From assembly GCF_910592395.1 (NCBI RefSeq), contig NC_088323.1, forward strand, positions 1,054,001 through 1,118,000: DNA of 64,000 nucleotides, written 5' to 3'. The stretch is from Lineus longissimus (Eukaryota > Nemertea > Pilidiophora > Heteronemertea > Lineidae). Of this stretch, positions 14,885 to 52,882 are shown in pieces. Position 1 is the first letter of the stretch, and the number at the start of each line of letters is the position of its first letter. The notes under the pieces are model-generated. The model saw only the letters and a list, made by a program, of their open reading frames with translations. It was not told the origin of the DNA and did not search any database. The position numbers were made by a program, and so were the translations under genes.

Positions 14885-14951
14885 ATGCCGACACTAAAGA
14901 TGGAATACTACCACGGGATATTACTCGCAATCATAGGAATATCAATGTGCG
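14885..14951 (+). CDS. CHRNA-like: nAChR exon 1 (start codon and signal peptide core)
   Basis: The ATG at 14885 opens 22 codons plus one base, with a hydrophobic run (ILLAIIGISMC), then the donor G|GTGAGT. The split codon joins exactly to the CT at 33001, making Ala. This yields a signal peptide that continues into exon 2 (ACLTFA) before the mature DDNEYRLI start. The phase match and the resulting signal peptide are the evidence. The 18-kb distance makes transcript confirmation worthwhile, because a different, nearer exon 1 cannot be excluded. Confidence 0.72.
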
Positions 14952-26900: not shown

Positions 26901-29900
26901 GCAACCATGGGGAACCCATAATCTGGCATGGGCAAAGTAAACTACAGCAGTTAAACCACGAAGTTCCTCTTGTACTAGATCGTGTTCCGTTGCTGATGCA
27001 TCTTAAGACATTTGCCGGAGGAAACTGGGTTTAGAAAGCTGGAGATAGTACTGATGTTTGTGTATAGAAATGTACATAACATCACTGTTAACATCAACTT
27101 TATCCAAGTCAACCCGAGTTCTGTTTCCTACACTGAATAAGAATAACAAAGGCTTAAAACCGAAATAATGTAACGATTATGCTTTATTTTTTTCTACACG
27201 TTATAGCTCTGATTATAATTATAGTCAAAACACCATTTTGCTAGTAAAGGCCAATGTTGTACATGTAGCAATTTTTAACAGCTTTTTATTATCGTTGATA
27301 CGAGATTTGCATCTTTTGGAACATAGAGCAATAGTGTGATGGCATCTTGACTGTGCCTCCTATTGGGCGCCAACATAATGATCGGCTGACCCAGGTGTTG
27401 GGGCTTTGCACTTTCTTCCTATAACCTTCGGCAGATGAAGTACTTTTCTCAGGGTCCGCCTGAATCGAGATCCAGTGAGACAATATATGTAGAAGTTGAT
27501 GAAGCAGTTCACCACGCTCAGAAAATAAAAGAAGGTCAGAAGATAATGATACTTCCAATAGTCGATTTTGTCCGAGAAATAACCATATTTACGCATGACA
27601 GCCACGATTTGTATTAAGGAACCTGGTAGCTCCAGTATAATGAAAATGTATACTACGGCCAGGACTCTGATGGTGGTTGCTCTAACATTGTCAGCAACTC
27701 TACCGCCACTTGTGCTGAGGGTATTGGAGGCGGATTTCTTCAGTGCAGAGATTAGACGGTGTGTGAAGAACCCCATACTGAATATCGGGAACCAAGACAT
27801 CAGAAAATTGTGTAGGAACAATTGGTAAATGAATACGTAAAACGGATTAGAGTTCATTGGTCTATAGGAAAGTTTTGGCAAGTAGGTTTTTGAGCAGCGA
27901 TCGTATTTCAATTGAGATGTGTAAGGGAAAAGATACGGGATGCGATAGACTATGGAGAAAATCATAGCAGAGAGACATACAATGCGGGCGTTCCGTATTG
28001 TGCAGATGGACGCAGCGCGCAGTGGCTTGCAGACGGCAATGTATCTTTCCGCCGCCACGAATATCGTAATGTAAACAGACCACGTCTTTGCAAACCAGAA
28101 AAATGCCCATAAATAGGCGTACCCCATCTCGTAGAGTTTTCTGTAAACTGGAAGGACCCCCAAGAACTGGTATAGCTGGACCATCGTCGAAAAGAAGAAA
28201 CGGCCTAGCAAAACCAACGTGTCTGAGATGGCCAGGCACCTTAGTAGTACAGAGGTTGATGTGAACGGCCTCTCCAATCCCAAGACGACGAATGAGAGGC
28301 CGTTACCGATCACGCCGAAGAATTCAACAAACAGATGCATCGGGACGTAGGTTACAAAGTAATACATCAACCGCGAATCGAGGTCGGTGACTCCGTAAAT
28401 AGGATAGAGACATAATCGCCTGTTTAGGATCACTCCGTCGTCCGCCAGGGTTGTTTCAGTCATGTTGTCCATCGTTGCGAATCCACCTATTCCAGCAGGT
28501 CGTGGGATGCCCGTTTCAAATGTCTTTTGCTCCCAGAATATCTCCGAGAAACCAGTTTTCAGCAGGATCAGTTGTCTGAAGCTGAAATAACACGAGTCTT
28601 TCACTGAGTTCCTTACTGGCTTAGTCGCTAGCGTCGGTGTTATCTCGTTGCTGGCGTTATCTTTTTCGTATTGACAGATACATACAGCTTAAGATCTAAC
28701 ACCAGCGTTAGCGCTAGGACTCTTTGAAACTGGTGGTCATTTGGGGTGTTTAAACACAGGGCAACATGCTCTTCCACGAGCTGCTCGCAGTTTTCCTACG
28801 GTCATCTGGCATTTGTCCTATCAGGGTGATTTAATACTGATGGATTTCCGTCTAAATACTTACGAGAGAACAATCGCCTGTTGTCGGCGTGCAGCAGAGA
28901 GAGAACTTCCCGCCTGATTTATTATTAATATGACCATTGCAGTGTTTGTGGAGTCTATCTGCTATAAAAAGTGAGCAATTTGTCGAAAATTATCAGTCCC
29001 ATAATTATGGCGAAACATAACACTATATCTACCAATGGCCTGGGGCTAAGCGTTGCCTTCAAAATACAGATATGCTTTGAAACATAAAAAAACAGTAGCA
29101 CACGTGTTATTTGTGTCTGGCTCGTGTCTCTTCCCCGATATAAATCAACCACAATATCTCTTTAGCTTTGATATAATGCACTGAGTGAGCTGGTAGGAAA
29201 AAGTTGGTAGCTTTATGAGTCTGAACATACTTCTTCACGCCTCCACAATTCCCTGGCTTCGTGTCCACGGCTTCATTCAAAGCAGATTTCGTTTGAGCCG
29301 CAGTTATCTGTATAATCTCGATTCAGAATACCTTGCGTCAGATAGGGTAGCCAAATAGAAAGACTTGCAAGAGCTAGTGCGCACGTCTTGTCTGTTGTAC
29401 CCTTAGTTCCTATGCAAATATGGCGGACACATCAGTCAAAGATACAAATCAAATGAACCAAAATGTGCGGTGTTTACTGAAGTAATACCACTAAATGGGT
29501 AGCAGAGACTGGTCAATGGTGGAATTTAGGCTAGGGAAATTTGATTTGCGGTTAGAGTGACCCATCACATTATCAGTCTGACCGTTTAAGCACCAGAGCA
29601 CTTTGTAGAGTGACCAATAAATCTGTGTGTTGAAGAAAGGGCTGGTCTATTTTTACTGAGTGACAGAGGTGTAAATATGCCTATTGCCCAGTTGATAATG
29701 GAAAGCAAGGTGTAGTGCAAGAAGGAAGAAATCTTTTATATTTTGATCAATGTAGCTTCCCGATTTTATGGTGACGGATTGAGGTATTTGTCAGTAAATA
29801 CCCTTGAACTTCATGTTACCATGTATTAAGGGGTTAAAGGGTCTAGGCCTAGTTATTCTAATATAGTTATTCCTTCTAGGCCTATGGGGCTTTGTTATGT

Positions 29901-32900: not shown

Positions 32901-35900
32901 CGAACCCTAACTTATGGTGGCAGCAAAACCACCAGTCACTGAGTAATTATAGACTATCCAAAAGCTGTCTTGACCTGCTTTATTTTCTCTTTCTTTGTAG
33001 CTTGCCTAACCTTTGCTGACGACAACGAATACCGGCTAATCCACGATCTTCTTCGCAACTACGACAAACGAATCCGTCCATCGAGGAATGCTACTGAACC
33101 AATGAATGTCACATTCGGCCTCGCTCTCAGTCAAATCATTGACGTGGTAAGGCGATCGACCAATGAGGGTGTAAACTACCATTCATTCCGCCTTATGTAG
33201 ACACGTTTTGGCCAATGGGAGACCTGGCGATCATTCACTCCGTATCACACAGTAATCTAATCAGTGCTTTTGTATTGCAAGGGGGCGTATAAGCTTCGTC
33301 CCTATTGTTTGTGAAGGATGGCAATGGTTTCGCTTTCATCTTTAACTTTAGTCAGAGGTAGGCCTAACTAGCTGGAGTCTGTTGATCAGTGAAGTGGTAC
33401 CAAATATATTTTTTGTTCATTTTCTAGGATGAGAAAAACCAAATCATCACAACAAACTGCTGGCTCAATCAGGTGAGTGTGGTCATACATTTTGTGGATA
33501 TTAAACACAGCCAGCATGGTATTCGATGATCTCGTCCCTGCAATCCAACAAGAGCTACACGTCAAAGTTTTGCAACTCGACCTCTAAATTTTCTGTAGCC
33601 TCTTCACAAATTCAACTAGCCTTCAAAAGTTCATAGCCTTCATCAATGTGAACAGTGCTAATTCAATCGTATTCTTGAATCGCTATCATTTCCTCCTACG
33701 TACATGTATATGACTGTGATCCTTTCAAAGTGCTGCCGTTTCGAATTACGCCGATATCTTCATCGAATTATTTTCAGTGTACCAGCTGAGTGTTTACAAT
33801 GTCAACTCCCTGCATTCGTATTATAACTAATCCATGCTTTGTATGGTTTCTGGTGTATATAGTACGATGTATATCCAAATTAATCATTGCTCTTCTTTTT
33901 GTTCCATTGGTATTGAATAATATCTAGCGTGATAATCAGTGCATATAAACATACGTCTGTCGAAGGCGTTTTGTATTTTGGACCATGGCAATAGCCTCGG
34001 ACACTATCAAATTCTCATCCAATCTTTGACTAAAAATCATGGGACAGACGGAAGATCTAAAGAGGCTAAAGTGCTGAATCAGCACTTCCAGATAATTGGA
34101 TAAAAAAATTGATAGTGCGCTGTTGGCGTAGTTGTTCAGTCTGTTTGCAGGCTAACTTCTGCTGATCAAATACTTTTTTCCATTTTCATGATAACCCGGT
34201 TTTCTCCACGCTAGGTTTCCTTCCCTTTGATGAAGTTTTGATTTCAGATGATAACTGCATATCACTATCTTCGAGTTCAATGAGAGAGACATTTGTGACG
34301 GAGGTTTTGCAAATGATCATGATATGTTCCTAACACAATCCCTTTCTTGGTTTAGTTTAGGTGGTAGTATGGTGGTATTGTAATCAACAGATTAGACTAA
34401 TATCTCCCCAGTTTCAGTAGACGAAGAAAGTAGGGAGATACTAGTAAACTACTTAGCTGCACACTCTAGGTCCTATCCAACCTAGATTCACATCACTGTA
34501 GAAAAAGCACCATATTTACCAGAAAGGCAATGTGAGCATTAATGCAGATGTGTCAACCAAAATATGACCTACTTGCTGGTTTTAATATAATGAAATGGAA
34601 GAGTCGCTAGTTGAGTCAGTTGATGTATCAGTGTAACTATCAGTAAAAGATCTATTAATGCCTGGTTGCAAGAATGGCCACCTAGTTTTAAATGGTAGAA
34701 CTACCTAGTATGTCGAACCTGAAGTGTGCGACGAAGGTCAACCGAATTTCTTTGCTTGGTTTGGAGACCTAAACATCATAACTGTCTAAACATTCTCCGA
34801 TGCAGATTGAAGTAGGTATAGTATATGTTCATCATTTCGCACTGTCATACAAGGTTACGATTAGTACGTGTAGCTACAAAATATAACAACCTGTAAAGTT
34901 TTCTTTCAACTTTGAATAAGACCGTCACATTGTCTTTTAGTGTCCTGCAATAGTTAGTGTAGATGTTAGTTTTACTTTCAGGGTTGGCTAGATCCTAACC
35001 TTTCTTGGAATAGGACGGAATATAATGGCATTGCTGAGATAGTATTGCCGTTTGATACGGTTTGGAGACCCGACACTCTCATTTACAACAAGTAAGTCAG
35101 GTGGCAAGGTCAGGGGTCACCAAGCATGCGTACAAGGATAACATATTGGGGTAGCACTTGGATATTTGCATGAGTTGAAACGTGTTAAAATGTATATCTT
35201 AACTATCTGGTGGTTCTTAAAAGTCATATTGTTTGGCAGCGATTGGATACGACCATGAAGGTATAGACTTGTATTACATCACTAATGGTCCACCCACTCC
35301 CTTGTCAAGTTATGACTATGAAAGATGAATATTTCGGCAGCTACTTTCGGTTTAGTGCGTACGTAGACTTCATTTGGCGATCGTGTGTAAGTGGTTTGTT
35401 ATCAAAACGATAACAACGAACTATCAATCCAAATAGCAAAGGATAAAATTGAAAATTTACCTATGAAAGTATCTCAGTGCTATCCCTTATGATCTGTAGT
35501 TAGTCCCTGAGTGAGAGTGCGAAGTTAACATGCATGCCACCATGTCATGATTTAACCACTTATTTTTGCAGAATTGGTATGACGATAAGTTTGTGTGGAA
35601 TTCGTCAGATTATGGCGGCATCAAAGAGGTCATGTTACCTTATGATGTCGCCTGGAGGCCTGATATACTCCTGTATAATAAGTAAGTACAGGAAGTTCAT
35701 CTCAGGACGAGTTTATGGGACGAGTTGTGCATTCTATATACAACACACTGTCAGATCGTGGCCGGTAAATAGAACTGAAATCACCATATTGATAATAAAT
35801 TATTTTGGTGTTACACTGGCATTCATCAATCTTCAATCATGGAATGTTCTGGAACAGTAATTTCTACTTCAAAATATTTTGTTATTAGCTTCACAGCGCA

Positions 35901-38900
35901 TCGTTGTGGAAAATGTGGATACATGTAAAGGTACAAAATGGCCTTTAAAGAAAGGTTACCGAGCCGATAATCTCTATGTAAGGTTATAATGAAATGGCAA
36001 GTATGGTATAGAATGTATAACTTTCTCTACAAACTCCATTTGAAATGAGCTCTTCCAAGGGATAACAATACTACAGTCCAACGATGTTAACCTCTCTACA
36101 ATCCATGCATTTTCAGAACTGGCAGGATGTAAAATTAAAATGGAACTCCACTGACTATAATGGTATAAAAGAGATAGTTTTGCCTTACGATGTGGCATGG
36201 AAACCTGATACGATTTTATACAACAAGTATGTATGTAAATCAGTTGTCGGCACGGCCATGGAAGACATTTTGTCTTTTTTTTATTTGATGGTTTTATTCG
36301 CATTTTCTGTTCGCCTTCTCACATGTTTGACCCTTGTACGAAAAGATAAACAACGTGTTGCAGATTAAAACATTCACATAACGTACCACCTTATCCACAA
36401 AAGTACACAATAAAAACAAATCATCTTCTTTATAAACTTGTTTTAACGTACTGAAGACTGTTCGACGTCATGCATATTGATTTCTTAGATACATTGCAAA
36501 GTAATCAAAACCAAATTATGTGTGCCAATACAAAATCACACCCCAAAATTATTTGGCCAAATTGAAAAACGTAAAAAACCTCGCATTATTCAAGCAGAAT
36601 ATCTCCATACCAAAAAAAAATAAAAGGTACAGACATGTATTTGTTAGCAACTTTGTTCAAACACGGGTCTTTTTTTTAATGAGTGGGGCTAATGATTAAA
36701 AGGGGTTTCCCAGGTAAGGAGTTTTGCTGCCTCGTCATATCATTACATCCATCTGACTCTGAAGCTTGCTGTATTTGCTTATTTTGAGTGCAGTGCAAAC
36801 CTAGCGAACTTAAAACGCCTTCAAAGAATGGCATGAATGCACATTTAACGATGGAGTACTTGCTTTGTGATGCTTCAAATCTGTAGCACTGCTTTGGGCT
36901 GTAAATTTAGTATGTTTTGAAAAGGGAGTTGGGCCGTCTCGTTCTGGATCCCGTCCTGTTGCCTAGCGTAGACGAATGTATTATCAACCGTAATCTACGT
37001 CCAAAGAACGCTCATGTCATGAAAAGTGGAGGTCAATTTGCGACCAATCAGTATGAGAATGTTTTTCTTTCAGTGGATCATTCGATCAGGTCAGAGCCAA
37101 TCCACGTTCTGTAAGCGATCTCATAAAAAGCTAACGTCAATTGGGAAAATCAGTTTCAATTTGTCCTGGTCTAGTCACGAATTGATTACTTTTGGAACTA
37201 AGTATGTTCTGTTGTCGTCCACTGTAGCCGCAGAATCTCACTGATTCAGAGAATAAAATGCTTCGTAACTATCACACATGTACTCGGCATGTGTCCTTTT
37301 TCATGCTTATTCAGATTTTGGCCAATATATTTATAATCAAGCAATGTTCTTCCACAGACATACATGATATATTCAACTCGTGACAGGTGATAAGGTTTAG
37401 TTAGATTTGCACGCCATCCATAAAAATGCATTTAAAAGCAAATCACAGCGCTCAACCTGCTTATTAAAGTTGGCGTTGTCATGTGTGAATATATGACAGA
37501 TAAATCAATTTACACAATATACAGTCAATAGTAGTTTCTTGTGCTAACCTAGAACTGTGATATTACCTTTATAACGATCAAATGCTGTTCAACTCTGCAA
37601 CAACTACCGTTTGGCTAAACATCTTGAAATGATATGTCGATATATTTAAAATACAGACATTTAAGATATTGTTAAGGCTGAATAAAGCAAGAAAGTATTA
37701 CAACTATCTGATTATCAATAACCCTAAGCTAAACTTGCTTATCTTTCATGGATATGAAAGAAACCCAGATGTGTTTTGGAGATTTGGATATAAAGGCATT
37801 GACTTGTAACTGTATAATTTAATCACACAATCACTTTAAGCATGTTCAAACTTTCATTACATTTTGTCTCTTAACCTTTCTGTCGCATTTACTTTCTTTG
37901 CTTCAAAATCTACATAAATTTACATTACATATATATGTCGATCGAAAAACGCAATCGCTTTTTCTGAATGCTATTTTCCTAACTTAAATCAAAGTTTGAT
38001 TGTAAGAAAGCATGATTTAAAAATTCTTTCTATTTAAACTTTTCGGAATGATAAATGTTGTGGTGAAAACACAGTAGACTAGATAAATAAATGTTCTTCT
38101 AAATTTGTCTTCAATATAACTTCTTTCCTCTTCATTCACTATGATTAACGGATGAAAACGAATGTTGCCTTTAATTTTATATGCCATTTCACACAAATGC
38201 AAATGTCTTAAAATCATCTTTAAATTATGTGAAATGTACTTCGTAATATTACAAAAACATACTGACATCAACAATCAAACCTACTATACCGAAATCCAGT
38301 TCATGTAAAATCGCATTGGATCACATAACTGTACAATGTACAGTTTTGTGTATTGATTTGTGTCAAACATTTCATCCGAGGTAAGTTGTAAGTAGTGTAA
38401 AAAAAGGTAACAAAGTTACGTGTTATATTCAATGATACCATTTTTGTCTTGATACATCTTCAGTGTGTATTGGATTGAATCCTTGATCTCCGCTCTATAC
38501 CATTAACCATGCCCCATCCTGTGATTGTTCACCCTGGATAATTCGTACCGATTGCAAAACTCTTGCAGTAAATCAAGACGCAGGAGAGTCATGCCTTAGT
38601 TTCAGGTTGACAAGAAGGTCACCATTGGATTACACAGGCGAGGCACGTACGGGCACCTATCATTCTTGGCCACCTTTACATTACACAAGTCTGTGATGTC
38701 GTAGTGCCATTCGTATGCTCCCAGTTGGGAATATTCCGTGCACTGGGTCAGCCCGCTGGCCGGATGATGATAACCATCTTGACAAAAGGCGGGCATGTCA
38801 TATTCCAACTCATTGGCTTTGATCAACCAACCCTCTATTCACGATAAGGGACAAGGTTTTTCGTCCTTTCATTTGACATTCATTAAACTATTTGTTTTTC

Positions 38901-41900
38901 TTTTTACAGCGCCGACTCGGCCTCCCACTGGTCGTCAATGAGCACAAACATTATGGTGACCAGCGACGGCAACGTCACGTGGCTTTCAATGGTCATATTC
39001 AAAAGCAGCTGCTCCGTCGATGTAAAATACTTTCCGTTTGACGAACAAAACTGTAGCATGTGGTTCGGATCATGGAGCTACGACTCGAAATACATTCTTT
39101 TAAAAACAACATCAGACGAAGGAGACAAGACGAACTATATACCAAACACAGAATGGCAATTAGTAGAATTGCACGTGGAGGAGAAAAATATAACATTTTC
39201 TTGTTGCATTACCCCGTGGCCAATGGTGGTGTACACTGTTCAGATGCGACGGAAACCGCTGTTCTATATTTTCAACATGGTATTGCCGTGTAATTTGATA
39301 ACTTTAGTGGCACTCTTGGGTTTTTACGTGCCGTCTGACTCGGGTGAAAAAATAACCATGGGGATCACGACGCTGTTGTCCATGACTGTGTTCCTAATGA
39401 TAGTGGCGGATAGTATGCCAGCTACGTCGGATGTATTACCACTTATAGGTAGGTACACTGTTGTTGTATTTGATATCATTTACTCCGGACATGTGAAGAA
39501 TTAGGCTTCAGGCAAATATACCACACGGAGCAAAGCACTTTAATGAAGCATATACTCGTCGTTACTAATATCACCCAACATTTGAGCGCTTTCTCCTTTG
39601 CAGGCCTCTACTATGGTATTACTATAGCAATTGTCTCGTTCGCCACTGCCATGACCGTCTTTACTTTAAACATCCACCACAAGGGCTTCCGGGGTAAAGA
39701 GGTACCAGACTACATCAAGAAGATCTGCTTTGGATTCCTAGCCAAGATTCTGTGTCTGAGATTAGACCTGCCAGAAACCGCTCCTGGTGATATGCAGGGT
39801 GGAACAACGGTGAGTTTACGACATTGGGAAATAGTTCTACTATTACACCAAACGTGGTAGCTTTAACAAAGGTGTACAGCAGTCATGTGGGTAATATTGA
39901 TCTTCCCACTGTCCTGCTGTTAATGACTGAGTAAGAGGAAGGGCACCTGTATGGAAAAGACGACCTATTGAAGTGCAAAATATTAACTATGATTATTATT
40001 ATCAGCGATTGTTTGGCTGTAACGCCAACACGACCCTTTATGATTATGAAACGATAGCATTTCTTTTTGAAAAACTTGTTCAAATAAATTTCATAAGGGT
40101 CAATTAACCTAAAAGAGAGTAGCCGCAAGAGAGTGTGTTTTTTTAGTAAAAACGGTGTATAGATTTCAAATTATTTGCCTCAGAACGATCAGACGACGTC
40201 TACTTCGCCAACCACTGTTTCGTATATACCAACACCGATGGACAACCCCCTGATCAACAGTCCAGACTCAGGAGTCATAGACCTCCATGAATTTGTATGT
40301 TATAAGTCTTACATCAACCCCAACCCTATTGCAATGGTCCTAAGTTTGAATTAGCCTTAAAAAGTAGGATACACGGTCACTCAAACTTTTTTTTTCTCCT
40401 CGGCAGTTGATTATACTCCTGGTTTAAATACGCTCACAAGCAATTTTTTTTTCGAGCACATAGTTTTTCTTTCAGCAGAAAATAAATTATATGTTGATAC
40501 CAAGTGATACTGAAGTGCCCCTTCCCCATAAAATCATCTTAAAGCACTATTTCTATGTTATAGCGTAATAACAGATACCAACAAGATATGAACTTTCGCG
40601 AGACAGAGCCGTTATACAACACGGTAAACTTAATGAATAAAAATGCTTGAACACGCTGATGCGACGAGATTGTGCTTCGTTTCGAGAATATCTGTTGGTA
40701 CATTGAAATATTGTCTTCTTCTTCTTGTACAAATTGTTCTTATGAAAACTTCTGTTTCATATTGGTTGACCTAATTGACTGTTGCATGTATTTACATGTG
40801 CTGTCCGTATTTCATAACAGAGTTTTCCTTCTCCTTGATTGATTTCTGACCAAGGTTGGCGATATTGACCCTGATTTCACAGCCAAAACACTGACATCAA
40901 CCAATCGGTATTCTCCAAATGTAGACAATCGATTGAATGCTGTATTCCTAACCGCTTGGTTACGGTTCAATAACTCTAATAATGCATTTATTCACACTTA
41001 TTCGGGTAAACTGTATGGTGTAAGGATCCTTCCCACCTTCATTCATTGTGTACTTGTACTATGCGTTGCCGTCTTAACCCCGAAGCTGCATCTATGCCCA
41101 GACCTTTCCCCCAGTGTACACCACGATAAGATAACATTCATGTATAGTAATTAGTAAACCCCAAACTTTCTACAGCTCTAGTCTATAGGTAGACCCTCTA
41201 TCATTACGTTGCTTCTTACAGAATATGCAATGCATATTCGAAAAGTTAACAACCTATGCGATCATACACAGGCGTATGCGCCTGCCATTGATTTCGGTCA
41301 ATTTTAAGTAGATCTTCTACAACATCTATTAAATTTTAAGTTTAGAAGTTTTTCTTGTAAATTATGTATGCCGTATATTCTTTCATCTTTTGGAGAGTAT
41401 GCACTTCTGAAAACCTCATCAGGTATTGACATAAATCTATCAAAGATACAGAACGTGAAGATAGGTTCTAGCAAGAAGTTGGGTGAACGAAATAACATCG
41501 TCTCTAGTATCCATAAGACTCGGGTTGTCCACGATGCGACTATACATTAATCCGTAGCCTTTAGATGTATGCCATCGACTCACCAATTTACATCTTGCAG
41601 CGTTGGTTGATATTATGAATGAATATATGGTATAGGGAAAGACTCGTTTCAAGTGCTTTAACTTGAAACCTCGTGTATATACATTCAAACTTCCCATTTT
41701 TGAACAAAACTAAAGTAAAAGCATCAACTGATTATTCATATCATCACGTGTCTCTCTTTGCTGGACAGCATCATAATCTATCATGTCTATGGCTGATATT
41801 ATCACACTTAAGCACGTTTTCTTTGGGGGGGGGGCGCCGGGGGGTAACATCACTGAGTTTACAGAACCAACAAGACACTAGTGTTGGTCTCTATCCATCG

Positions 41901-42812
41901 CATGACCATTTCCCTCTAACGGCTTGTCTCTGTCTTGCATGTAGTTTACCTCCGGAGAAGGCGGGGAGACCGGCAACAGTTCATATATGAGGTTACGGCA
42001 GGCAAACAAATGGTTACGGCCGGAGACTGGGAAGACGCATATGACGCAACTTGTAGGTTCTTTAGAGTCCTATCCTTGCTTTAGTTAGATTTTGTTTGTC
42101 CGTTGCTTTGGTGCATGGTACCACAGAACTACGAATACTAGCATCCACTTTCTGGCATATGTGACGCAGTCTCAATCGAGAAAAGCTGTGCGTTGTGGCC
42201 GTGTTGAATTAGTCGTCTGGTATTTCTTTCTGAAATGGACCTGGTTGACATAATAGCAATAAGAAATTTGGTTAGTTGGTGTCGTAATAATGTTCTGTTT
42301 TTCTCATCATCATCTCTTCATATTTCTCGTAATGTCTTCCGCAACCATGATCAGCAATTTCGAACGATTTTCCCTTGTTTCAGGACTTCGTTCCGCAGGG
42401 AGAATTTAAACGTCGATACGACTCGGAGCCGGGGACGATTCCAGAAAATGGCGGCCTTTCGCCTCGCATGACAAGTAGATTACGTAATCCAGGAACTGGT
42501 GGCACGAGTCGTAGTACTAGTAATACAAACTCTACAAATACGGACGATTTCGAGAGACAGTTTCTCCGAGTTTTGCAAAAGGTGTATCAGACGATAGAGA
42601 AGAATGAAATGCGCCTGGCAGATCAGGATCGTCGGGATGCTATTAAGTTAGAATGGCAACAGGTGGCGCTGGTGGTTGATCGTCTGCTTTTAACTTTGTT
42701 CGTCGGTGCAACTCTGGGGGTGACTTTAGCCATTTTATTCCAGGCGCCTTATTCAACCTCGTCCTTGTTCGGAAGTCAACAGGAGGAACGAGGAGGATTT
42801 TTTGTGCAATGA
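14885..42812 (+). CDS. CHRNA-like: Nicotinic acetylcholine receptor, alpha-type subunit (8 coding exons plus 2 alternative exon-4 copies)
   Basis: Ligand-gated cation channel subunit acting as a pentamer in the plasma membrane. Exons: 14885-14951, 33001-33146, 33428-33472, one of three exon 4 copies (34982-35091, 35572-35681 or 36117-36226), 38910-39448, 39604-39809, 40184-40294, 42384-42812. All joins have AG acceptors and GT donors and keep frame, giving 550 aa. Visible features: signal peptide with cleavage near ACLTFA; the EYRLIHDLL start of the ligand domain; the 13-residue Cys loop (C157-C171); loop B SW at 177-178; vicinal CC at 221-222, marking an alpha-type subunit; TM1 about 239-262; TM2 about 270-290, starting at GEK with Leu at 9' and Asp at 20' (cation selective); TM3 in exon 6; an amphipathic MA helix and TM4 in the last exon. 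Exon lengths of 45 and 110 bp match the conserved vertebrate CHRNA7-type layout. The intracellular loop is short. Exon 1 is the least certain part. Confidence 0.95.
18733..18745 (-). repeat. tRNA-like B box (3' half of a tRNA-derived relic)
   Basis: On the minus strand the sequence GGGTTCGAATCTC is a good RNA polymerase III B box. It is preceded by AGAGGTCGC and followed by CCCGATCCAGCA, resembling the 3' half of a tRNA. No A box lies at the right distance and no acceptor stem forms, so this is a decayed tRNA copy or SINE fragment rather than a tRNA gene. Confidence 0.5.
21047..21482. repeat. Diverged dispersed repeat, copy 1 (interrupted)
   Basis: Three blocks match copy 2 at 22519-22690 in the same order: GAATGAGAA(C/T)CGTAG...CATGA.GAGACGGACCT, a block ending GAATGATTTGA, and AGTCCGATCAAGCAGGGT...GACCAT.AGCAATGCAAA. 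In this copy the first two blocks are separated by roughly 270 extra bases (about 21094-21365), suggesting an insertion here or a deletion in the other copy. The family is unknown. Confidence 0.65.
22519..22690. repeat. Diverged dispersed repeat, copy 2 (uninterrupted)
   Basis: The compact counterpart of 21047-21482. The best-preserved stretch, AGTCCGATCAAGCAGGGT, begins at 22627 here and at 21419 in copy 1. The two copies sit about 1.2 kb apart, just downstream (3') of the first GPCR gene on the minus strand. Confidence 0.65.
22936..24018 (-). CDS. Class A GPCR, peptide-receptor type (nested copy 1)
   Basis: Intronless 360-aa seven-transmembrane receptor of the rhodopsin family. Visible landmarks: N-terminal sequon NSS; GN in TM1 (N56); LAVADTLVL in TM2 (D83); an AERF motif at residues 140-143 in place of DRY, followed by VAVCRPLHA; ILEVP with Pro282 in TM6, lacking the usual CWxP; and NFYIY at 325-329 in place of NPxxY, then CLTGTRFRRTL as helix 8. 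The position of the usual TM3 disulfide Cys is Phe. The VNFYIYCLTG...FRR ending and CRPL segment resemble invertebrate FMRFamide-type receptor sequences, so a neuropeptide ligand is likely but unproven. It lies antisense inside intron 1 of the acetylcholine receptor gene and is a clear paralogue of the gene at 27360-28472. Confidence 0.95.
   Translation of the reverse strand: MENSSFTTETSVADHEPTNCLYPVYGFTNWTTKNYFDFIMYMPLYLFIIVFGIIGNSLSYVVLGMEKPFTSTSVLLRSLAVADTLVLISRFIHYTLLQLNKFFGVFSVFWKFWMINFPYLWTFLWFAKTLSVYATVCVAAERFVAVCRPLHAASYCTIRNARIASLCVVIFAFVYRLPYLFPYTTKWNYDPCTDTFLPLRAYQPMYFNIYYILIYTVILHNFLMCWIPITTLVFFTRRLLEALHKSASVSQVTEGGRTTENLRATTVRVLAVVHIFIILEVPSSLIQIVGIMRKYGYFVNKIDYNTYAYFLATTYFFGAVNSFVNFYIYCLTGTRFRRTLMKVLRRPVDIARNIKVPARK
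24257..24305. repeat. 15-bp tandem repeat, about 2.5 copies
   Basis: The unit TTCTCAATATTCTTA recurs head to tail in the putative 5' flank of the first GPCR gene. It is short and shows no sign of coding. Confidence 0.7.
27285..27290 (-). terminator. Candidate polyadenylation signal for GPCR copy 2
   Basis: TTTATT on the plus strand reads AATAAA on the minus strand, 70 bases past the stop codon of the receptor gene at 27360. A second hexamer lies at 27183-27188. Confidence 0.5.
27360..28472 (-). CDS. Class A GPCR, peptide-receptor type (nested copy 2)
   Basis: Intronless receptor of 370 aa when started at the ATG at 28472 (MDNMTETTLADD). The open frame extends 44 codons upstream to an ATG ending at 28604. 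I prefer the inner start because its N-terminus aligns with copy 1 (both have a LYP.YG segment before TM1) and supplies a sequon (NMT). Motifs: GN in TM1, LAISDTLVL in TM2, AAERYIAVCKPLRA after TM3, ILELP in TM6, NFYIYCLTGSRFRRTL at the end of TM7. Like copy 1 it lacks the usual TM3 Cys and has ER(Y) instead of DRY. The C-terminal tail is longer than in copy 1. Its ligand is probably a peptide by family resemblance. Confidence 0.95.
   Translation of the reverse strand: MDNMTETTLADDGVILNRRLCLYPIYGVTDLDSRLMYYFVTYVPMHLFVEFFGVIGNGLSFVVLGLERPFTSTSVLLRCLAISDTLVLLGRFFFSTMVQLYQFLGVLPVYRKLYEMGYAYLWAFFWFAKTWSVYITIFVAAERYIAVCKPLRAASICTIRNARIVCLSAMIFSIVYRIPYLFPYTSQLKYDRCSKTYLPKLSYRPMNSNPFYVFIYQLFLHNFLMSWFPIFSMGFFTHRLISALKKSASNTLSTSGGRVADNVRATTIRVLAVVYIFIILELPGSLIQIVAVMRKYGYFSDKIDYWKYHYLLTFFYFLSVVNCFINFYIYCLTGSRFRRTLRKVLHLPKVIGRKCKAPTPGSADHYVGAQ
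29943..30126. repeat. 63-bp perfect direct repeat pair
   Basis: GCCATTTACTCCCTGTCTGT... at 29943-30005 recurs without a mismatch at 30064-30126, an offset of 121 bases. Each copy ends in TTTACAACAGGT, which resembles a splice acceptor. Complete identity implies a recent duplication. Confidence 0.9.
32075..32160 (+). repeat. tRNA-derived SINE head with pol III A and B boxes
   Basis: TGGCATAGTGG at 32082-32092 matches the A box and GTTCGAATCC at 32128-32137 matches the B box. Their 46-base spacing is that of a tRNA gene. The 5' TGCTTCA has no complementary 3' partner and the T arm pairs poorly, so a working tRNA is unlikely. A T-rich tail (TATATTTTTTCATTTG) follows. It is best read as a SINE head or tRNA pseudogene. 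Confidence 0.65.
33001..33146 (+). CDS. CHRNA-like: nAChR exon 2 (N-terminal helix of ligand domain)
   Basis: This 146-bp exon is bounded by CTTTGTAG and GTAAGG. It encodes the end of the signal peptide and the classic DDNEYRLIHDLL...YDKRIRP start of a nicotinic subunit, then NVTFGLALSQIIDV. It ends in phase 0 and joins exon 3 (33428-33472, 45 bp, DEKNQIITTNCWLNQ), which supplies the WLNQ motif just before loop D. Confidence 0.93.
34982..35091 (+). CDS. CHRNA-like: nAChR alternative exon 4a
   Basis: First of three 110-bp exons with the same start phase (0) and end phase (2). It is flanked by TTTCAG and GTAAGT and reads GWLDPNLSWNRTEYNG...VWRPDTLIYN. It carries the loop D Trp at its second residue, an N-glycosylation sequon (NRT), and loop A WRPD with the downstream Tyr. 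It is the most divergent copy, with 18 of 36 residues identical to copy 4b and 22 of 36 to copy 4c by my count. It begins with Gly where the other two have Asn. Confidence 0.9.
35572..35681 (+). CDS. CHRNA-like: nAChR alternative exon 4b
   Basis: Second copy, 110 bp, acceptor TTTTTGCAG and donor GTAAGT. It reads NWYDDKFVWNSSDYGG...AWRPDILLYN. It has the same phase and the same landmark residues (loop D Trp, sequon NSS, WRPD, Tyr-Asn) as 4a and 4c. It matches 4c at 25 of 36 residues, so these two look like the more recent duplication. Joining two of the three exons in one transcript would shift the frame, because 110 is not a multiple of 3. Confidence 0.92.
36117..36226 (+). CDS. CHRNA-like: nAChR alternative exon 4c
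   Basis: Third copy, 110 bp, acceptor TTTTCAG and donor GTATGT. It reads NWQDVKLKWNSTDYNG...AWKPDTILYN. Loop A is WKPD rather than WRPD and the sequon is NST. The first residues after the loop D Trp differ among copies (LD, YD, QD), as does the segment following them (PNLS, DKFV, VKLK). Variation is therefore concentrated next to the complementary face of the ligand site. A further 2.7 kb of intron separates it from exon 5. Confidence 0.92.
38910..39448 (+). CDS. CHRNA-like: nAChR exon 5 (Cys loop, loops B and C, TM1, TM2)
   Basis: This 539-bp exon is bounded by TTTTACAG and G|GTAGGT. Its first base completes the Asn codon left by any exon 4 copy, giving the family motif YNNAD. It holds the Cys loop CSVDVKYFPFDEQNC, loop B GSWSYD, loop C FSCCITPWP, TM1 and the whole TM2. 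In loop C the residue two before the CC pair is Phe where Tyr is usual, and Trp stands in the following Tyr position. The exon is longer than the separate exons of vertebrate alpha7 genes, compatible with intron loss. Confidence 0.95.
39604..39809 (+). CDS. CHRNA-like: nAChR exon 6 (TM3 and start of intracellular loop)
   Basis: This 206-bp exon starts after TTTGCAG and completes the split Gly codon (PLIG|LYYGI). TM3 is LYYGITIAIVSFATAMTVFT, followed by LNIHHKGF and a KEVPDYIKKI segment typical of the post-TM3 region. It ends in phase 0 before GTGAGT. Exon 7 (40184-40294, 111 bp) continues with a Thr/Pro/Ser-rich loop ending DLHEF. Confidence 0.93.
42384..42812 (+). CDS. CHRNA-like: nAChR last exon (MA helix and TM4)
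   Basis: After TTGTTTCAG the frame reads DFVPQGEFKRRYD, a Gly/Ser/Asn/Thr-rich linker, an amphipathic helix FERQFLRVLQKVYQTIEK, the conserved EWQQVALVVDRLLLTLF entry to TM4, and ILFQAP, then a short tail to a TGA at 42810-42812. This is the standard C-terminus of nicotinic subunits. Confidence 0.93.
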   Translation, partial: DFVPQGEFKRRYDSEPGTIPENGGLSPRMTSRLRNPGTGGTSRSTSNTNSTNTDDFERQFLRVLQKVYQTIEKNEMRLADQDRRDAIKLEWQQVALVVDRLLLTLFVGATLGVTLAILFQAPYSTSSLFGSQQEERGGFFVQ

Positions 42813-45159: not shown

Positions 45160-45410
45160 TTTGCTTTTCATATCATCACCATCAACAATATTGTCAATCA
45201 TGTCAATATCGTCATCATTGTCATCGTCATCATCATTATCAACCTAATTATAATCTTCATCATCGTATCATCATCAGCAGCAGCAGCATCATCTACCTTC
45301 CTCAGTTGAAATTGCGGTTGATATGTCCTCATCATCGTCATCATCATCCTCTTCTTCTTCATCATCATTATCACCATTGGTCTTTTCCCAGCTTTTGTCA
45401 TTTTCACGGT
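45160..45410. repeat. Imperfect ATC/CAT microsatellite, block 1
   Basis: Dense imperfect repeats of ATC/CAT/TCA with interspersed GTC and TTC triplets. They create spurious Ser/His/Ile-rich frames on the plus strand and Met/Lys/Asp-rich frames on the minus strand. Confidence 0.9.
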
Positions 45411-46029: not shown

Positions 46030-46260
46030 AATACTCTCTTATTGACATCATCATAATAAACGTCGTCGTCATAAATGTCATCGTTATTCATCGTCATTAT
46101 TGTTACACAGCATCATCTGCGTCTGCGTTACTATCATGCTGACACCATCATCATCATCACCATCATCATCATCATTATCATCATCGTCATCATCCTATTC
46201 ATCATCATCGTCGTCATCGTCGTCATCATCATCATCATCATCATCGTCATCGTCATCGTT
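46030..46260. repeat. ATC/CAT microsatellite, block 2
   Basis: A second block of the same triplet repeat, purest at about 46143-46260 where CATCATCAT alternates with CGTCATCGT. It probably shares an origin with block 1, about 600 bases upstream. No gene is implied. Confidence 0.92.
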
Positions 46261-47722: not shown

Positions 47723-50700
47723 ATGGCCGATGTATGGCTGCCCGGGTCCTCCATAGCAGACGAAGGAGCCCCTCTCCTACCTGCGGTTCTTGCGAGACTT
47801 AACGAGGTGGAAGATGAACTACGTGCAGTTCGAAAGCAGCTGGAAACTCGCGATGGCACAATCGGTTTCAAAGTCGAACATGTCACTCAGGTAGTTGTTT
47901 ATGTATAAAAGGGGCACGTCGTTCGTAATTACTGGTGGTTCGGGAAATACAAATGCCGTAGTGCAGTTATTATACGAATGTGCTGAAACTTAAAATCTAT
48001 CTGCTTCCGCAACGGCAACATTTGAAAGAACAATCCGCCATTTTGTCTCTTTCAAAATATTCTTTCAGAACCACGTGACGCCAGAGATAAATGCAAGGAG
48101 CGAATTTGAAATCGACGATGCCGCATCGAAACCGGAGGTTGCGCAGGGTCGTTTCAATAAGCTGATATCTAAGGTGACAGGTGGCTGCAAAGAGTTCTGG
48201 TTTCACCACAGCCGTCACGTGGCTTTAGCAACAAAAGTGGCAGTTCTGCTTCTGTATGGAGCATACTTCTGTTATGCAATGTATTACAGGTATGAACACC
48301 TCTAGGCAATTTTGGCAATCACCAGTTCATTATTCACACGATTTTTGCACTATTCTTAGTCATCATCTAAAACTGACAGTAAACATTTTCGTTGATTGTG
48401 TCAAGATAAAGTTTAGGCACCCGTTGCTGTTAGCCTCGCAATTTTCATATTTTTCAGTTTTGGAGACGAGGCTTCAATCCGTTTGCTCGGAGTAACAACC
48501 CTAGCGTTTGTGTTAACCCTCTATGTGCTATTCAGAGATCGAGTCGGGCTTAAACTCTATAAATCACACATCAGTCCATTCTGGAAAAAGGTGAAACGGA
48601 AGCGAAGATTGATGATTGTTCTAAAATGGTGAGTTGGGATTTAAATGAAGGACGTAAGCTATATTGCAAATTTGAGGGTCCGATGCAGTAGCTTCGGGAA
48701 TGTGTTTTTGTCAAAGTTAGATTTTAATACTGGTTTAAACCATTAGTGCCTTTGATTTTCATAAAATTTCAACATTAGCACAATTTTGGAGAATCGTCGG
48801 TAGGGACCTTTTACTTTATCCTTGTATCATATGGAAGAGTCCAAGCAGATAATGACGAGATGAATTTTACCTACACATTGTCACTCTAACTGATGTGTTT
48901 TTAACTCTTTCAAATTACAGTACATTTGGTTTGATCTGCCTAAGTCTATTACTGGCAGCGTTGGTCTTAGAAATCGCAATGAAAGACTCGAAAAACCTAG
49001 CGTCTCTCGGCGGAATGTGCTTCCTGCTGTTGATTACATTCATAACTTCAAAACATCCTGGAAAGGTACTGTTACTGCATCTACTAAACGATGTAATCTC
49101 TTCCAAACAATCTCAAATACGGAGTTTGATTCTAGTGCTTTTCCCCAAAGATACCAACAGTAGGCTATAAAACCGCAAACAGTATTTCCCCGATCCTGCT
49201 GTGACATTACAAGCAAGTGACATTACAGGCGACCTCCAAAGCCAATGATTGTAACGGTTTAGAGGCCATCATGATTGATAAGCAGCAACGAGAGAATTGT
49301 ATGTCCAACCTTGACAAGCAAATTTTATCGAATCAGTTAAAGTGATTTTCGCAAATAAATGATACTTCCATGAACTTTTCTAGGTAAAATGGCGGCCTGT
49401 CGTGTGCGGCATGGTTCTACAGTTTGTGTTTGCCCTGATGATTCTACGGACTACGTGGGGACACGGCATGTTTAATTGGCTTGGAGAAAGAGTCAAAGAG
49501 TTCTTGGCGCATGCGGATAAGGGGGCAGGGTTCGTGTTTGGGCCAGAAGAAGCTGCACATATGATAGCGTTTCAGGTACTTTACATTCTTTTTTCGAATA
49601 TAGGCATGGTGAATAGACAAAGGGATATCACTACAAAGGATGGCCATGGGGGAACACTCCTTACAGCCTTTACTGACTTTCTAATGGCAAAAACCGTGCT
49701 CCCTTAATGCCAGCTTCATAACCCCAAGTCAACCGGCGTGGTTTTACCTTACCTTGCTTCAAATAAAACGATCTACACTAAATACAGGTACCTATATATG
49801 AATATCCATCCTGTCCTGATTAAACTTTCAACTTGGAGACGTAAAAAAAGATTTGAAAATATTTGTCATGATCATTTTCAGCTGCTTCCTGTGTTGGTGT
49901 TCTTCAGCTCCATTATATCAGTCCTGTACTACCTTGGCTGGATGCAAGTGGTCATTCGAAAGATTGCTTGGATCCTGCAGAAGGTCCTGGCAACTACCGC
50001 TGCGGAGAGTGTCAACGCTTCATCTAATATCTTCCTTGGGTTTGTAAGTGTTTGCTCTCAAACAGGGTATTACCTTCAATAAAACAACTCGTGTCAATGC
50101 TTGTGGTTGGGTCTCGTGAACGTCACCTCGGTCCTTAAGTGTTTCTAGTGGCAGATCAACTGTATCGTTACCACAATGCCATCACGACAAAAGCGCTAAA
50201 AACCTTGCATCTCGGCAGGCCTTCGTTGATACTTAAATGTAACGTACAATGATTGTATGACAAATAATGCGTCTCTTTACTTCAGGGACATTCTTTTACG
50301 AAATCGGAAGCTTATAAATCAAGGATCCAGTTCAGTTTCTTATTATCTTTGTACCTTGTTGCTACAGGCAGAATCTCCTCTTGTCATTCTGCCGCTACTC
50401 AAGTTCGTCACAGTCTCCGAGCTGCATGCCATAATGGTTGGAGGGTTCGCCACAATAGGAGGAGGCATTCTAGCTACATATATCCTTTTCGGAGTAAGTG
50501 TCGCACGGCTTCGGCGCTTCGAGAGTATTGGGACAGGTTTCTTTAACTGTTTAACTGTACGGCGCCCATGCAGACATGCGCTGATATCGGAGAAACCCTC
50601 TCTTGTGGATGATGCATGCGTATATTTCGTTTTATGTCATTGAAAAGACAAATCGTTTAAACTGCAATTCATATCCACATGGGCCCGAGCCCGGAACAGG

Positions 50701-52882
50701 CGACACAATCGCCATCTCAAGGAATTTTAAAAACTGAACGTCAGGTTTGCAAGTGGTCCTCCGGTCGCTGATATACTGATAGTGACTCCTATTTCGGTTC
50801 GACTTTCTCTCAAAAAAGGGACAACTGTTGGCGCTCAACAACAAACATAATCATTGCATCTTCAGATCCCTGCTGCTCATCTGCTGACGGCCTGTATTAT
50901 ATCGGCGCCGGCAGCTCTGGCTGTTGCCAAGCTTTCCTACCCAGAGATAGAGGCGACAAAGCTGAGCTCAAAGGATGTTGGCGACATGGGGAAGAGGTCA
51001 GTCCATGGACGTTTCTAGATAGATTAGGTGACGAGGCAGGAAAGTACCCGATGTGGTCATATTAGTAGGCCTCCCCGCCAGTGCGACTAAGTCTAGTAGT
51101 TGAATCTGCGCTTGCTGCCTTAGAGCTTTGATACTGCAAAACACTTATGGCCTGGGTAGGTCCATCTCAATACAGCCACGACCTTAATCCACCACAGAGC
51201 TATTTAGCAGGACTACTGCTACACTTTTATTCCTTTCTAGCACCGATGCGAATTTAGTTGAGGCGATATCGAGCGGTGCAGTGACTTCCATTAAGCTGTG
51301 TGCGTACGTCATCGTCAATCTCATCGCCTTCGTCAGTTTCCTGGATCTGGTGGACGGAACACTGAACTGGATTGGCCAGCGTGTCGGGATAGGGCCTCCC
51401 AACAACCTCCCCTTGTCCTTTCAAGTACGTCGGAGTTTTTCTGTAGAGTGTCAGCAAGCTTCTCTTTTCAGAGTCGTCCTTGGATGCTGAAATATTCAGG
51501 TTTTAGTAACGTGAAGCAGTCGAATATTTTAGAAAGCAAGCATGCTTGTATCCCTTCATCTCGCTCAAAGTCGCGAATGAAAATCTGTGAAATTATCTCA
51601 AGCCAAACTTGTCAATTCTTACCTCTCACATTGTGTTGCCACCTGTCGATTTGACAAACGGAGCACCGGGATTCAAGCCAGCACGGTTGTTTCTCGCATG
51701 CCATTTTCTTCATGATCAATTATAGTACGGTTGGCTCACTTTCATTTCAGTTGATATTGTCCTACCTGCTATGGCCAGTAGCATTTGTAATGGGCATTGA
51801 CACCGCCGACTGTCGTCAAGCTGCGGAACTGCTTGGTATGAAGGCCTTCCTGACTGAGTTCATCGCCTATTTGCAGCTCGGGGAGATGATACGAAACAGG
51901 GAATTTCTGGAGGACTTAAACTTTAATGGCACGATCATAGAAAAGACAGATGGGTTATATCTCCCTGCTTTGAATAAGACGTTGAAATATGGAGTAATGT
52001 CGGTATGTATCATGGTCATCGCAGGTGTCTTGGGGCGAACAAAGACCATCCTCGCATAGCAGGCTTTTGGATCATTTTTGAAGTACACTCACTCTTTGAT
52101 TCAGATGAAGTCTATTGCAAGAACGATACAGAAGTCTGCTGTTGAGGCAGCCAAAGACCATCGCCTATTGAAAGGGCACTGTGGATTAAGGAACCCTCTC
52201 AGCATGCATACAATGGTAGAAGTATTGACAACACGTACGCAGAATTTTGGCCACACGGGCGTTTATTCAAAGAGTTTTAGCTTGTTCTCCCAGCAGAGAC
52301 TACTATCACCATACACTAAAACATCTCTTCACACACCAACTGTGTGGGTAATGGCTGAAGCTGTGTCTGTTCTTATACCGTTACCGTATCTTATTTCAGG
52401 AGCGTTCGGAAGTGATCACAACCTACGCTCTATGTGGTTTCTGCAGTGTACAAGGAATCGGCATCATGATAGGTGTGATGGGCTCCATAATGCCAGACAG
52501 GAAGGCCGAGATCAGCGCAACAGTCGTCCGGGCGTTCATGTGCGGGACAGTGGCGTGTTACCTCACGGCGTGTGTGGCAGGTCAGTGTTGATGAACATAA
52601 GAGTTACCTAAAATCATTTACTAAGTGCTTATTGATCTACTGACAAACTGTAGACTCGAAAATCTAGCGAGTCAGTTTTGGTGGAAACAAGCCATGGTAC
52701 TTCTAATAACGATTCAAATCATAGATATATCGATAACAGGCAAAGGATTACGGCGAGCCTTTTCATTGTGAGCGTAACCGATATATTAGTTAGAATCACC
52801 ACCGCAGTTACTGGCGATTAAAATGGTAAAATTATAATATTTCTCTATTCATCCAGGTCTCCTATATGAACCATCCCCATGA
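47723..52882 (+). CDS. SLC28A-like: Concentrative nucleoside transporter (SLC28/CNT family), 12 exons
   Basis: Sodium-coupled nucleoside importer family of the plasma membrane. Exons: 47723-47890, 48069-48289, 48458-48628, 48921-49065, 49384-49575, 49882-50043, 50368-50493, 50866-50996, 51241-51424, 51751-52002, 52400-52580, 52857-52882. All joins are GT-AG and in frame, giving 652 aa, close to human CNT1-3. The start is the ATG at 47723; an upstream in-frame extension has only a GTG. The N-terminus is cytosolic with a coiled-coil-like Leu/Glu/Arg stretch (about 18-42). Family signatures: GFVFG...HMIAFQ, VFFSSIISVLYYLGWMQ, ATTAAESVNASSNIFLG, AESPLVI, TVSELHAIM, FATI, HLLTA, SAPAALAVAKLSYPE, LGMKAFLTEFIAYLQL, TYALCGF, VRAFMCGTVACYLTACVAG. 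The usual GQTE motif is GFAE (352-355) and the TM7 motif CGFANFSSIG is CGFCSVQGIG (596-605), so substrate choice may be altered. The C-terminal tail is very short. Confidence 0.96.

What the first reader, a model, noticed from the sequence alone, without database searches (positions are those of the whole stretch)
34982..36226. Three tandem, phase-locked copies of nAChR exon 4: likely mutually exclusive splicing of the ligand-site loop D/loop A segment
Three exons of exactly 110 bp each sit in one intron interval. Each starts in phase 0 after an AG, ends in phase 2 before GTAAGT or GTATGT, and encodes the same 36-residue block. Skipping the choice or using two copies shifts the frame, so only one can be used. 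All keep the loop D Trp, an N-glycosylation sequon, W(R/K)PD and the Tyr-Asn that joins exon 5. They differ next to the loop D Trp (LDPN, YDDK, QDVK), which lines the complementary face of the agonist pocket. Insect alpha6-type subunits are known to have alternative exons; a three-way cassette here would give one gene three pharmacologies. Copies b and c are the closest pair, so duplication was stepwise.
Basis: partly seen in the sequence, partly recalled or inferred. Interest (0 to 1): 0.88.

Follow-up and report, generated by a model that had tools for sequence, protein, structure and literature searches.

The report
Three-way swappable exon in worm receptor
A nicotinic acetylcholine receptor gene of the bootlace worm carries three interchangeable versions of one exon that shapes part of its acetylcholine-binding domain, so one gene can probably make receptors of two or three kinds, much as some insect receptor genes do with other exons.

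Summary
Three 110-bp exons (34982-35091, 35572-35681, 36117-36226) lie between exons 3 and 5 of a nicotinic receptor alpha-subunit gene, AG/GT-flanked, phase 0 to phase 2. Skipping them or joining two or three gives an early stop. A profile scan of the window finds only these three. Three public Lineus longissimus (Nemertea) isoforms (X2, X5, X7) rebuild letter for letter from window exons: X2 uses copy 4c, X5 and X7 use 4b, one copy each. This supports alternative, one-at-a-time use of 4b and 4c. Copy 4a is intact and keeps 10 of 11 family-invariant residues, but none of the three isoforms uses it and its own changes show no codon-position constraint. The pharmacology is misplaced: loop D's tryptophan lies in exon 3 (45 bp, single in the window); exon 4 carries loop A (Tyr93). 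The insect alpha6 pair 3a/3b is that neighbouring 45-bp exon, so an analogue, not the same exon. The b-c-closest order is unresolved. A crude test found no docking/selector RNA pairing. Verdict: a real, probably functional three-way cassette, on which my searches found no paper; a new variant of a known kind.

The parts
14885..14951 (+). exon 1, signal peptide (18-kb intron follows)
   Evidence: P0001 rebuilt exactly with this exon
33001..33146 (+). exon 2
   Evidence: AG/GT borders; P0001-P0003 rebuilt
33428..33472 (+). exon 3, 45 bp, DEKNQIITTNCWLNQ, present in the three isoforms; holds the loop D Trp (alpha7 W55); single in the window
34982..35091 (+). exon 4a, 110 bp, GWLDPNLSWNRTEYNGIAEIVLPFDTVWRPDTLIYN; not seen in the three isoforms available
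   Evidence: conservation; absence
35572..35681 (+). exon 4b, 110 bp, NWYDDKFVWNSSDYGGIKEVMLPYDVAWRPDILLYN; used in isoforms X5 and X7
36117..36226 (+). exon 4c, 110 bp, NWQDVKLKWNSTDYNGIKEIVLPYDVAWKPDTILYN; used in isoform X2
38910..39448 (+). exon 5, rest of the ligand-binding domain with the vicinal Cys pair, and first transmembrane segments; starts in phase 2, so needs exactly one exon 4
39604..39809 (+). exon 6
40184..40294 (+). exon 7, intracellular-loop cassette (in X2, absent in X5, X7)
40564..40623 (+). exon 7b, intracellular-loop cassette (in X2, absent in X5, X7)
41945..42052 (+). exon 8, intracellular-loop cassette (in X2, X5, absent in X7)
42384..42812 (+). exon 9 coding part, last transmembrane segment, ends FFVQ-stop

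Best explanation
The region is a three-member cluster of mutually exclusive alternative exons in a nemertean alpha-10-like nicotinic acetylcholine receptor subunit gene, made by duplication of the 110-bp exon 4. Each mature coding transcript takes one copy. Shown: copies 4b and 4c each occur alone between the same exons 3 and 5 in annotated isoforms, and the five other combinations tested break the frame. Inferred: splicing is enforced at least by loss of frameshifted products, probably also by regulated choice; 4a is a third, less constrained option; the choice alters the segment from the end of strand beta2 to loop A, and so tunes assembly, glycosylation surroundings or agonist response. The duplication probably arose within the nemertean lineage.
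For: Exact rebuild of P0001, P0002, P0003 from window exons; identical flanks with exon 4 only 69% identical between P0001 and P0002. Frame test, five combinations. Only three profile hits in 64 kb. Third codon positions near saturation (14, 14, 10 of 36 alike) against 24-32 of 37 at positions 1 and 2; 0 of 5000 neutral runs match in each of six tests. Family-invariant residues kept: 10, 10 and 11 of 11 for 4a, 4b, 4c. A tree of 107 other unique segments, human alpha7 and the three copies groups the three, support 0.841.
Against: No 4a isoform seen: 0 of 3 Lineus records, and no database representative shares three 5-residue words with the 4a stretch. The database is clustered at 90% and P0001, P0002 and P0003 stand for 6, 1 and 2 sequences, of which I saw only the representatives. 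4a's own changes are not concentrated at third positions (6 of 28, 7 of 31, 4 of 10 comparable sites; binomial p 0.87, against 0.088 for 4b and 0.0034 for 4c). The three copies score at the bottom of the family profile (4a, 4b, 4c exceed 0, 1 and 1 of 107 relatives; human alpha7 scores as low). Isoforms named X are computed models; their read support was not visible. No competing RNA pairing signal. Introns between copies (480 and 435 nt) are too long for steric exclusion as I recall that mechanism.
Confidence: 0.87

Rival explanations
1. A two-way choice (4b or 4c) with 4a a decaying or rarely used relic.
For: 4a absent from the three isoforms and from a region search; lowest profile score of the three, and Ile at alpha7 92 where 107 of 107 relatives have Leu; no third-position bias in its unique changes; shortest AG-free stretch before an acceptor, 10 nt, among the seven exons checked.
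Against: 4a has an intact frame, both splice sites, a glycosylation sequon and 10 of 11 invariant residues; if neutral since the split, simulations with 17-25 substitutions keep frame, splice dinucleotides and 10 invariants in 0.07-1.6% of runs, although with only 12 substitutions in 2-6%. Hidden 90%-cluster members may hold it.
Confidence: 0.25
2. Ordinary cassette or sloppy splicing in which two copies are often joined or all are skipped, giving mainly non-productive RNA as a means of lowering expression.
For: Each such product tested is frameshifted, which would suit regulation by decay; exon skipping is known for insect nAChR exons (passages of PMC5111602 and PMC2045683).
Against: Conserved coding differences between copies are not needed for that; the three annotated proteins have exactly one copy each.
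Confidence: 0.06
3. Dead duplicates or an assembly artefact.
For: None found; duplicated tracts can arise in assembly from haplotypes.
Against: Copies differ at 35-42% of bases, their flanking introns share nothing beyond one 17-base match, E 0.02, and two of the three are in annotated isoforms.
Confidence: 0.02

Closest known systems
Insect nAChR alpha6 exons 3a/3b
   Same: Tandem duplicate exons of a nicotinic alpha subunit's ligand-binding domain, used one at a time (passages of PMC1919356, PMC5111602, PMC8505678).
   Different: That exon is 45 bp, in frame, and carries loop D; double inclusion in silkworm keeps the frame. Its counterpart here (exon 3) is single in the window. Here the next exon, 110 bp and frame-shifting, carrying loop A, is triplicated.
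Insect nAChR alpha4 exons 4/4'
   Same: Alternative exon 4 in an nAChR alpha gene, thought to be from tandem duplication (passages of PMC2064938).
   Different: Two versions, changing loop E and the neighbourhood of the Cys loop (further 3'), with less efficient assembly of the 4' form in Drosophila (passage of PMC2045683); not the same segment.
Tribolium RDL and GluCl exon 3a/3b/3c
   Same: Three alternative versions of one ligand-binding-domain exon in Cys-loop channels (passages of PMC2064938): the closest precedent for a three-way choice.
   Different: Anion channels, arthropod, residues near loop D.
Lineus longissimus NCBI records, alpha-10-like isoforms X2, X5 and ligand-gated ion channel 4-like isoform X7
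   Same: This very gene; exons 4b and 4c already appear as isoforms.
   Different: Computed models by their X names (my knowledge), with no paper found on them; 4a not seen in the three records.

Membership tests
Nicotinic acetylcholine receptor alpha subunit | Neur_chan_LBD and Neur_chan_memb domains | tested here: met
   P0001: E 2.4e-65 and 1.2e-38; P0002: 8.6e-65 and 1.3e-39
Nicotinic acetylcholine receptor alpha subunit | Vicinal Cys pair of loop C | tested here: met
   FSCCITPWP in exon 5; the residue at alpha7 195 is Trp, not Tyr
Tandem mutually exclusive exons | Homologous adjacent exons with same length and phases | tested here: met
Tandem mutually exclusive exons | Inclusion of other than one copy disrupts the frame | tested here: met
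   five combinations, five premature stops
Tandem mutually exclusive exons | Transcripts contain exactly one copy | tested here: inconclusive
   3 of 3 isoform proteins seen carry one copy (4c, 4b, 4b), but these are models, reads were not seen and 4a is missing
Insect alpha6 exon 3a/3b type | Duplicated exon is the 45-bp loop D exon | tested here: not met
   an exon 3 profile finds one copy in the window, 57.0 bits, next best 3.9; the duplicated exon is 110 bp and begins four residues after W55; insect exon from passages of PMC5111602
Dscam-type docking/selector control | One site pairing with a selector next to each copy beyond chance | tested here: not met
   21 of 30 and 14 of 30 shuffles did as well in the two layouts; a crude single-genome test with 30-base windows
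Conservation in related genomes | Same triplication in other nemerteans | not testable with these tools
   among the 120 listed homologues one other protein is named as nemertean, Tubulanus polymorphus P0004; the offered genome collections are of prokaryotes and viruses; own-genome search not answered

The most novel reading that the evidence does not exclude
A regulated three-way switch in a nemertean receptor whose agonist site is already unusual (Trp at loop C 195, acidic residue at 77, aliphatic residue at 79) swaps the loop A-bearing segment, giving receptors from one gene with different agonist response or subunit partners. It would be the first such switch in this exon that I know of, reached independently of the insect cases.
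Probability: 0.3. Interest if true: 0.65.

Novelty: new variant of a known kind. Interest (0 to 1): 0.45.

Why it matters
Cys-loop receptor genes of insects duplicate different ligand-binding-domain exons to diversify receptors. A nemertean doing so with yet another exon, three-way, suggests that this gene family is repeatedly open to this solution. It also gives a compact natural experiment on what the beta2 to loop A segment does, since isoforms can differ in that segment with identical neighbours.

Tried and rejected
Loop D reading: rejected after alignment to alpha7. Insect alpha6 homology of the exon: rejected by that exon's 45-bp length and in-frame nature, with one exon 3 here. Insect alpha4 exon 4: considered as the homologous exon by its number, rejected because it covers loop E and the Cys-loop neighbourhood. 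Stepwise b-c duplication: unresolved. RNA docking/selector pairing: nothing beyond shuffles. Further or decayed copies in the window: none found. Other species with a swapped exon 4 among the best 120 of 591 homologues: of 75 pairs with over 90% downstream identity among 117 usable proteins, two (P0001 with P0002 and with P0003) fall under 75% in exon 4; the 90% clustering makes this a weak negative. Short-fragment search for 4a transcripts with an alignment of the three forms: 10 hits; the three best cover 98-100% of the query at 55-63% identity to the 4a form, and the most similar (87-88%) cover 25-29% (sequences not opened). Region search with 4a: nothing. Rfam: no match at gathering scores. 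The first script for conservation and tree hit its time limit and printed nothing; it held an IQ-TREE step, and it was rerun with FastTree. A positive-selection reading of 4a was not pursued: synonymous sites are saturated and no dS could be computed. Structure prediction was not run.
Full report
What is there. Each is 110 bp, follows an AG, is followed by GTAAGT (4a, 4b) or GTATGT (4c), starts in phase 0 and ends in phase 2. The introns are 1509, 480, 435 and 2683 nt (33473-34981, 35092-35571, 35682-36116, 36227-38909; from the coordinates). A profile made from 107 unique relatives' segments, human alpha7 and the three copies themselves, run without gaps over both strands of the window, gives 89.1, 87.4 and 79.6 bits for 4b, 4c and 4a and -39.9 for the next best place. 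So there are three and no recognisable fourth. Exon 3, tested the same way with 42 unique segments, occurs once (57.0 bits, next best 3.9).

Where it comes from. A search of about 5.8 billion clustered proteins with the spliced 4c form found 591 homologues, of which the best 120 were listed; the first three are of Lineus longissimus, named neuronal acetylcholine receptor subunit alpha-10-like isoform X2 (P0001) and X5 (P0002) and ligand-gated ion channel 4-like isoform X7 (P0003). All three rebuild letter for letter from window exons, whose borders are AG and GT. L. longissimus is a heteronemertean with a published 391-Mb assembly (PMC8593623; start of the abstract in the listing, one passage of its reference list). 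The window is therefore this species or something identical over this gene.

One copy per transcript. P0001 holds copy 4c; P0002 and P0003 hold 4b; none of the three holds two or none. The flanks of P0001 and P0002 are identical (30 residues before, 150 after) while exon 4 is 69% identical. Joining exon 3 to exon 5 directly, or using 4a+4b, 4b+4c, 4a+4c or all three, gives a stop at position 106, 146, 104, 104 and 148 (counted from zero) of the partial protein. Isoforms with X names are computed models that usually rest on RNA reads; that is my knowledge of the source, and no read was seen. Copy 4a is in none of the three. The collection is clustered at 90% identity and the three records stand for 6, 1 and 2 sequences, so a 4a form could be hidden there. 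A region search with the 4a stretch found no representative sharing three words.

Are the copies under selection? Pairwise, 24-32 of 37 sites agree at codon positions 1 and 2 but only 14, 14 and 10 of 36 at position 3. Synonymous sites are saturated (proportion differing 0.82, 0.84 and 1.17 for ab, ac, bc), so dS cannot be given; non-synonymous distances are 0.43, 0.33 and 0.20. In six neutral simulations (each ordered pair, 5000 runs) no run kept as many identical residues. Taken copy by copy the picture is uneven. Changes unique to 4c fall on 1 of 23, 1 of 25 and 8 of 14 comparable sites of positions 1, 2, 3; for 4b 5 of 27, 2 of 26, 8 of 14; for 4a 6 of 28, 7 of 31, 4 of 10 (raw counts and binomial p of 0.0034, 0.088 and 0.87 for 4c, 4b, 4a). 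Thus 4c is clearly constrained, 4b fairly so, and 4a not demonstrably by this test, which saturation at third positions weakens. Eleven positions are at least 92% conserved in 107 unique relatives' segments; 4a keeps 10 (L92 is Ile), 4b 10 (L65 is Phe), 4c 11. If 4a had been neutral since its split, an open frame with both splice dinucleotides and 10 invariants would survive in 0.07-1.6% of runs at 17-25 substitutions, and in 2-6% at 12. I read this as probable but unproven function for 4a. Against all three: they score below nearly every relative on the family profile (exceeding 0, 1 and 1 of 107), as does human alpha7. Rows left out: P0070, P0094 and P0109 of 120 did not give a 36-residue segment.

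What the exon encodes. In the alignment to human alpha7 exon 3 ends at alpha7 residue 58 and exon 4 spans residues 59-94 (hand count). The loop D Trp (alpha7 Trp55; named as loop D in a passage of PMC7723979) is the W of TTNCWLNQ in exon 3, which the three isoforms share. The Trp near the start of exon 4 is alpha7 W60, present in 107 of 107 relatives. Exon 4 ends with Tyr93 and Asn94; that Tyr93 is the loop A tyrosine is recalled, and passages of PMC7723979 and PMC5908294 list Tyr93 among ligand-contacting residues. It also includes residues 77 and 79; Arg79 of an ACh-binding protein stands among complementary-side contacts in the review's table as I read its columns, and Arg79 of alpha7 is listed among ligand contacts in docking. 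These are E/E/E and V/M/V in the three copies, so the copies barely differ there. They differ at residues 59, 61, 63-66, 69-71, 73, 76, 78, 79, 82, 84, 85, 87 and 90-92. The sequon at residue 68 is in all three, and in 37 of 107 relatives. The claim that the copies differ beside the loop D Trp is therefore not right as stated; an effect on agonist response through the loop A strand, assembly or glycosylation remains possible.

How the choice is made. The frame ensures that only single-copy transcripts are productive among the combinations tested. I looked for a Dscam-like docking site pairing with one selector per copy, in two layouts. The observed best weakest-of-three energies (-19.8 and -21.5 kcal/mol) were matched by 21 of 30 and 14 of 30 shuffles. 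This is a crude test on one genome. The AG-free stretches before the acceptors are 10 (4a), 45 (4b) and 38 nt (4c). The mechanism of exclusivity is thus open.

Comparison with the known. Insect alpha6 has mutually exclusive exons 3a/3b of 45 bp, encoding 15 residues with loop D; skipping keeps the frame, and silkworm transcripts can hold both (passages of PMC5111602 and PMC1919356). Insect alpha4 has exons 4/4' changing loop E and the Cys-loop neighbourhood (passages of PMC2064938 and PMC2045683). Tribolium RDL and GluCl each have three versions of an exon near loop D (passages of PMC2064938). So three-way exon choice in Cys-loop receptors is known; this segment, this gene and this phylum are not described in anything that I found. 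Searches behind that statement: in an open-access library without most subscription journals; most papers listed there were not opened. A paper on lophotrochozoan nAChR expansion (PMC6896357; passages) had no occurrence of 'alternative splicing' or 'nemertea' in its main text.

Origin. A FastTree of the segments rooted on human alpha7 groups the three Lineus copies (support 0.841), so Tubulanus lies outside them. With 36 residues this is modest evidence. Branching order within is unresolved (a with c, 0.33), although raw identities favour b-c (71 of 110 bases against 69 and 64). The shared E77 and V/M79, against V in 94 and R in 98 of 116 usable homologues, fit duplication of an already modified exon. 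Tubulanus, a palaeonemertean, has the similar D77 and L79. Whether Tubulanus has further exon 4 copies could not be tested.

Verdict. New variant of a known kind.

Noticed in passing
38910-39448 (exon 5) and exon 4 copies: The agonist site is unusual: Trp instead of Tyr at alpha7 position 195 of loop C (taken by fixed offset from the Cys pair) occurs in 4 of 116 usable homologues, all nemertean (three Lineus isoforms of one gene and one Tubulanus protein); an acidic residue at 77, seen in those four only, and V, M or L at 79 (five of 116, the fifth not one of these four) go with it (P0062, P0070, P0094, P0109 dropped). Worth a look given that some nemerteans make nicotinic agonists such as anabaseine, though the entries for Lineus that I saw are mixed, several below detection or none found (passages of PMC6410017).
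   Followed up: partly
34968-34981: A second AG lies 12 nt upstream of the 4a acceptor and would add four in-frame residues (FYFQ).
   Followed up: no
40184-40294, 40564-40623, 41945-42052: Three cassette exons of the intracellular loop vary between isoforms X2, X5 and X7.
   Followed up: partly
27408-28484 (minus strand): A rhodopsin-family GPCR-like reading frame lies inside the 18-kb first intron of the receptor gene, on the other strand (7tm_1 E 3.9e-17).
   Followed up: partly
47723-51000: A next gene on the plus strand looks by eye like a multi-pass membrane transporter; a 56-residue N-terminal piece had no Pfam match.
   Followed up: no
45186-45368 and 46146-46257: CAT/ATC-type microsatellite tracts downstream of the gene.
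   Followed up: no
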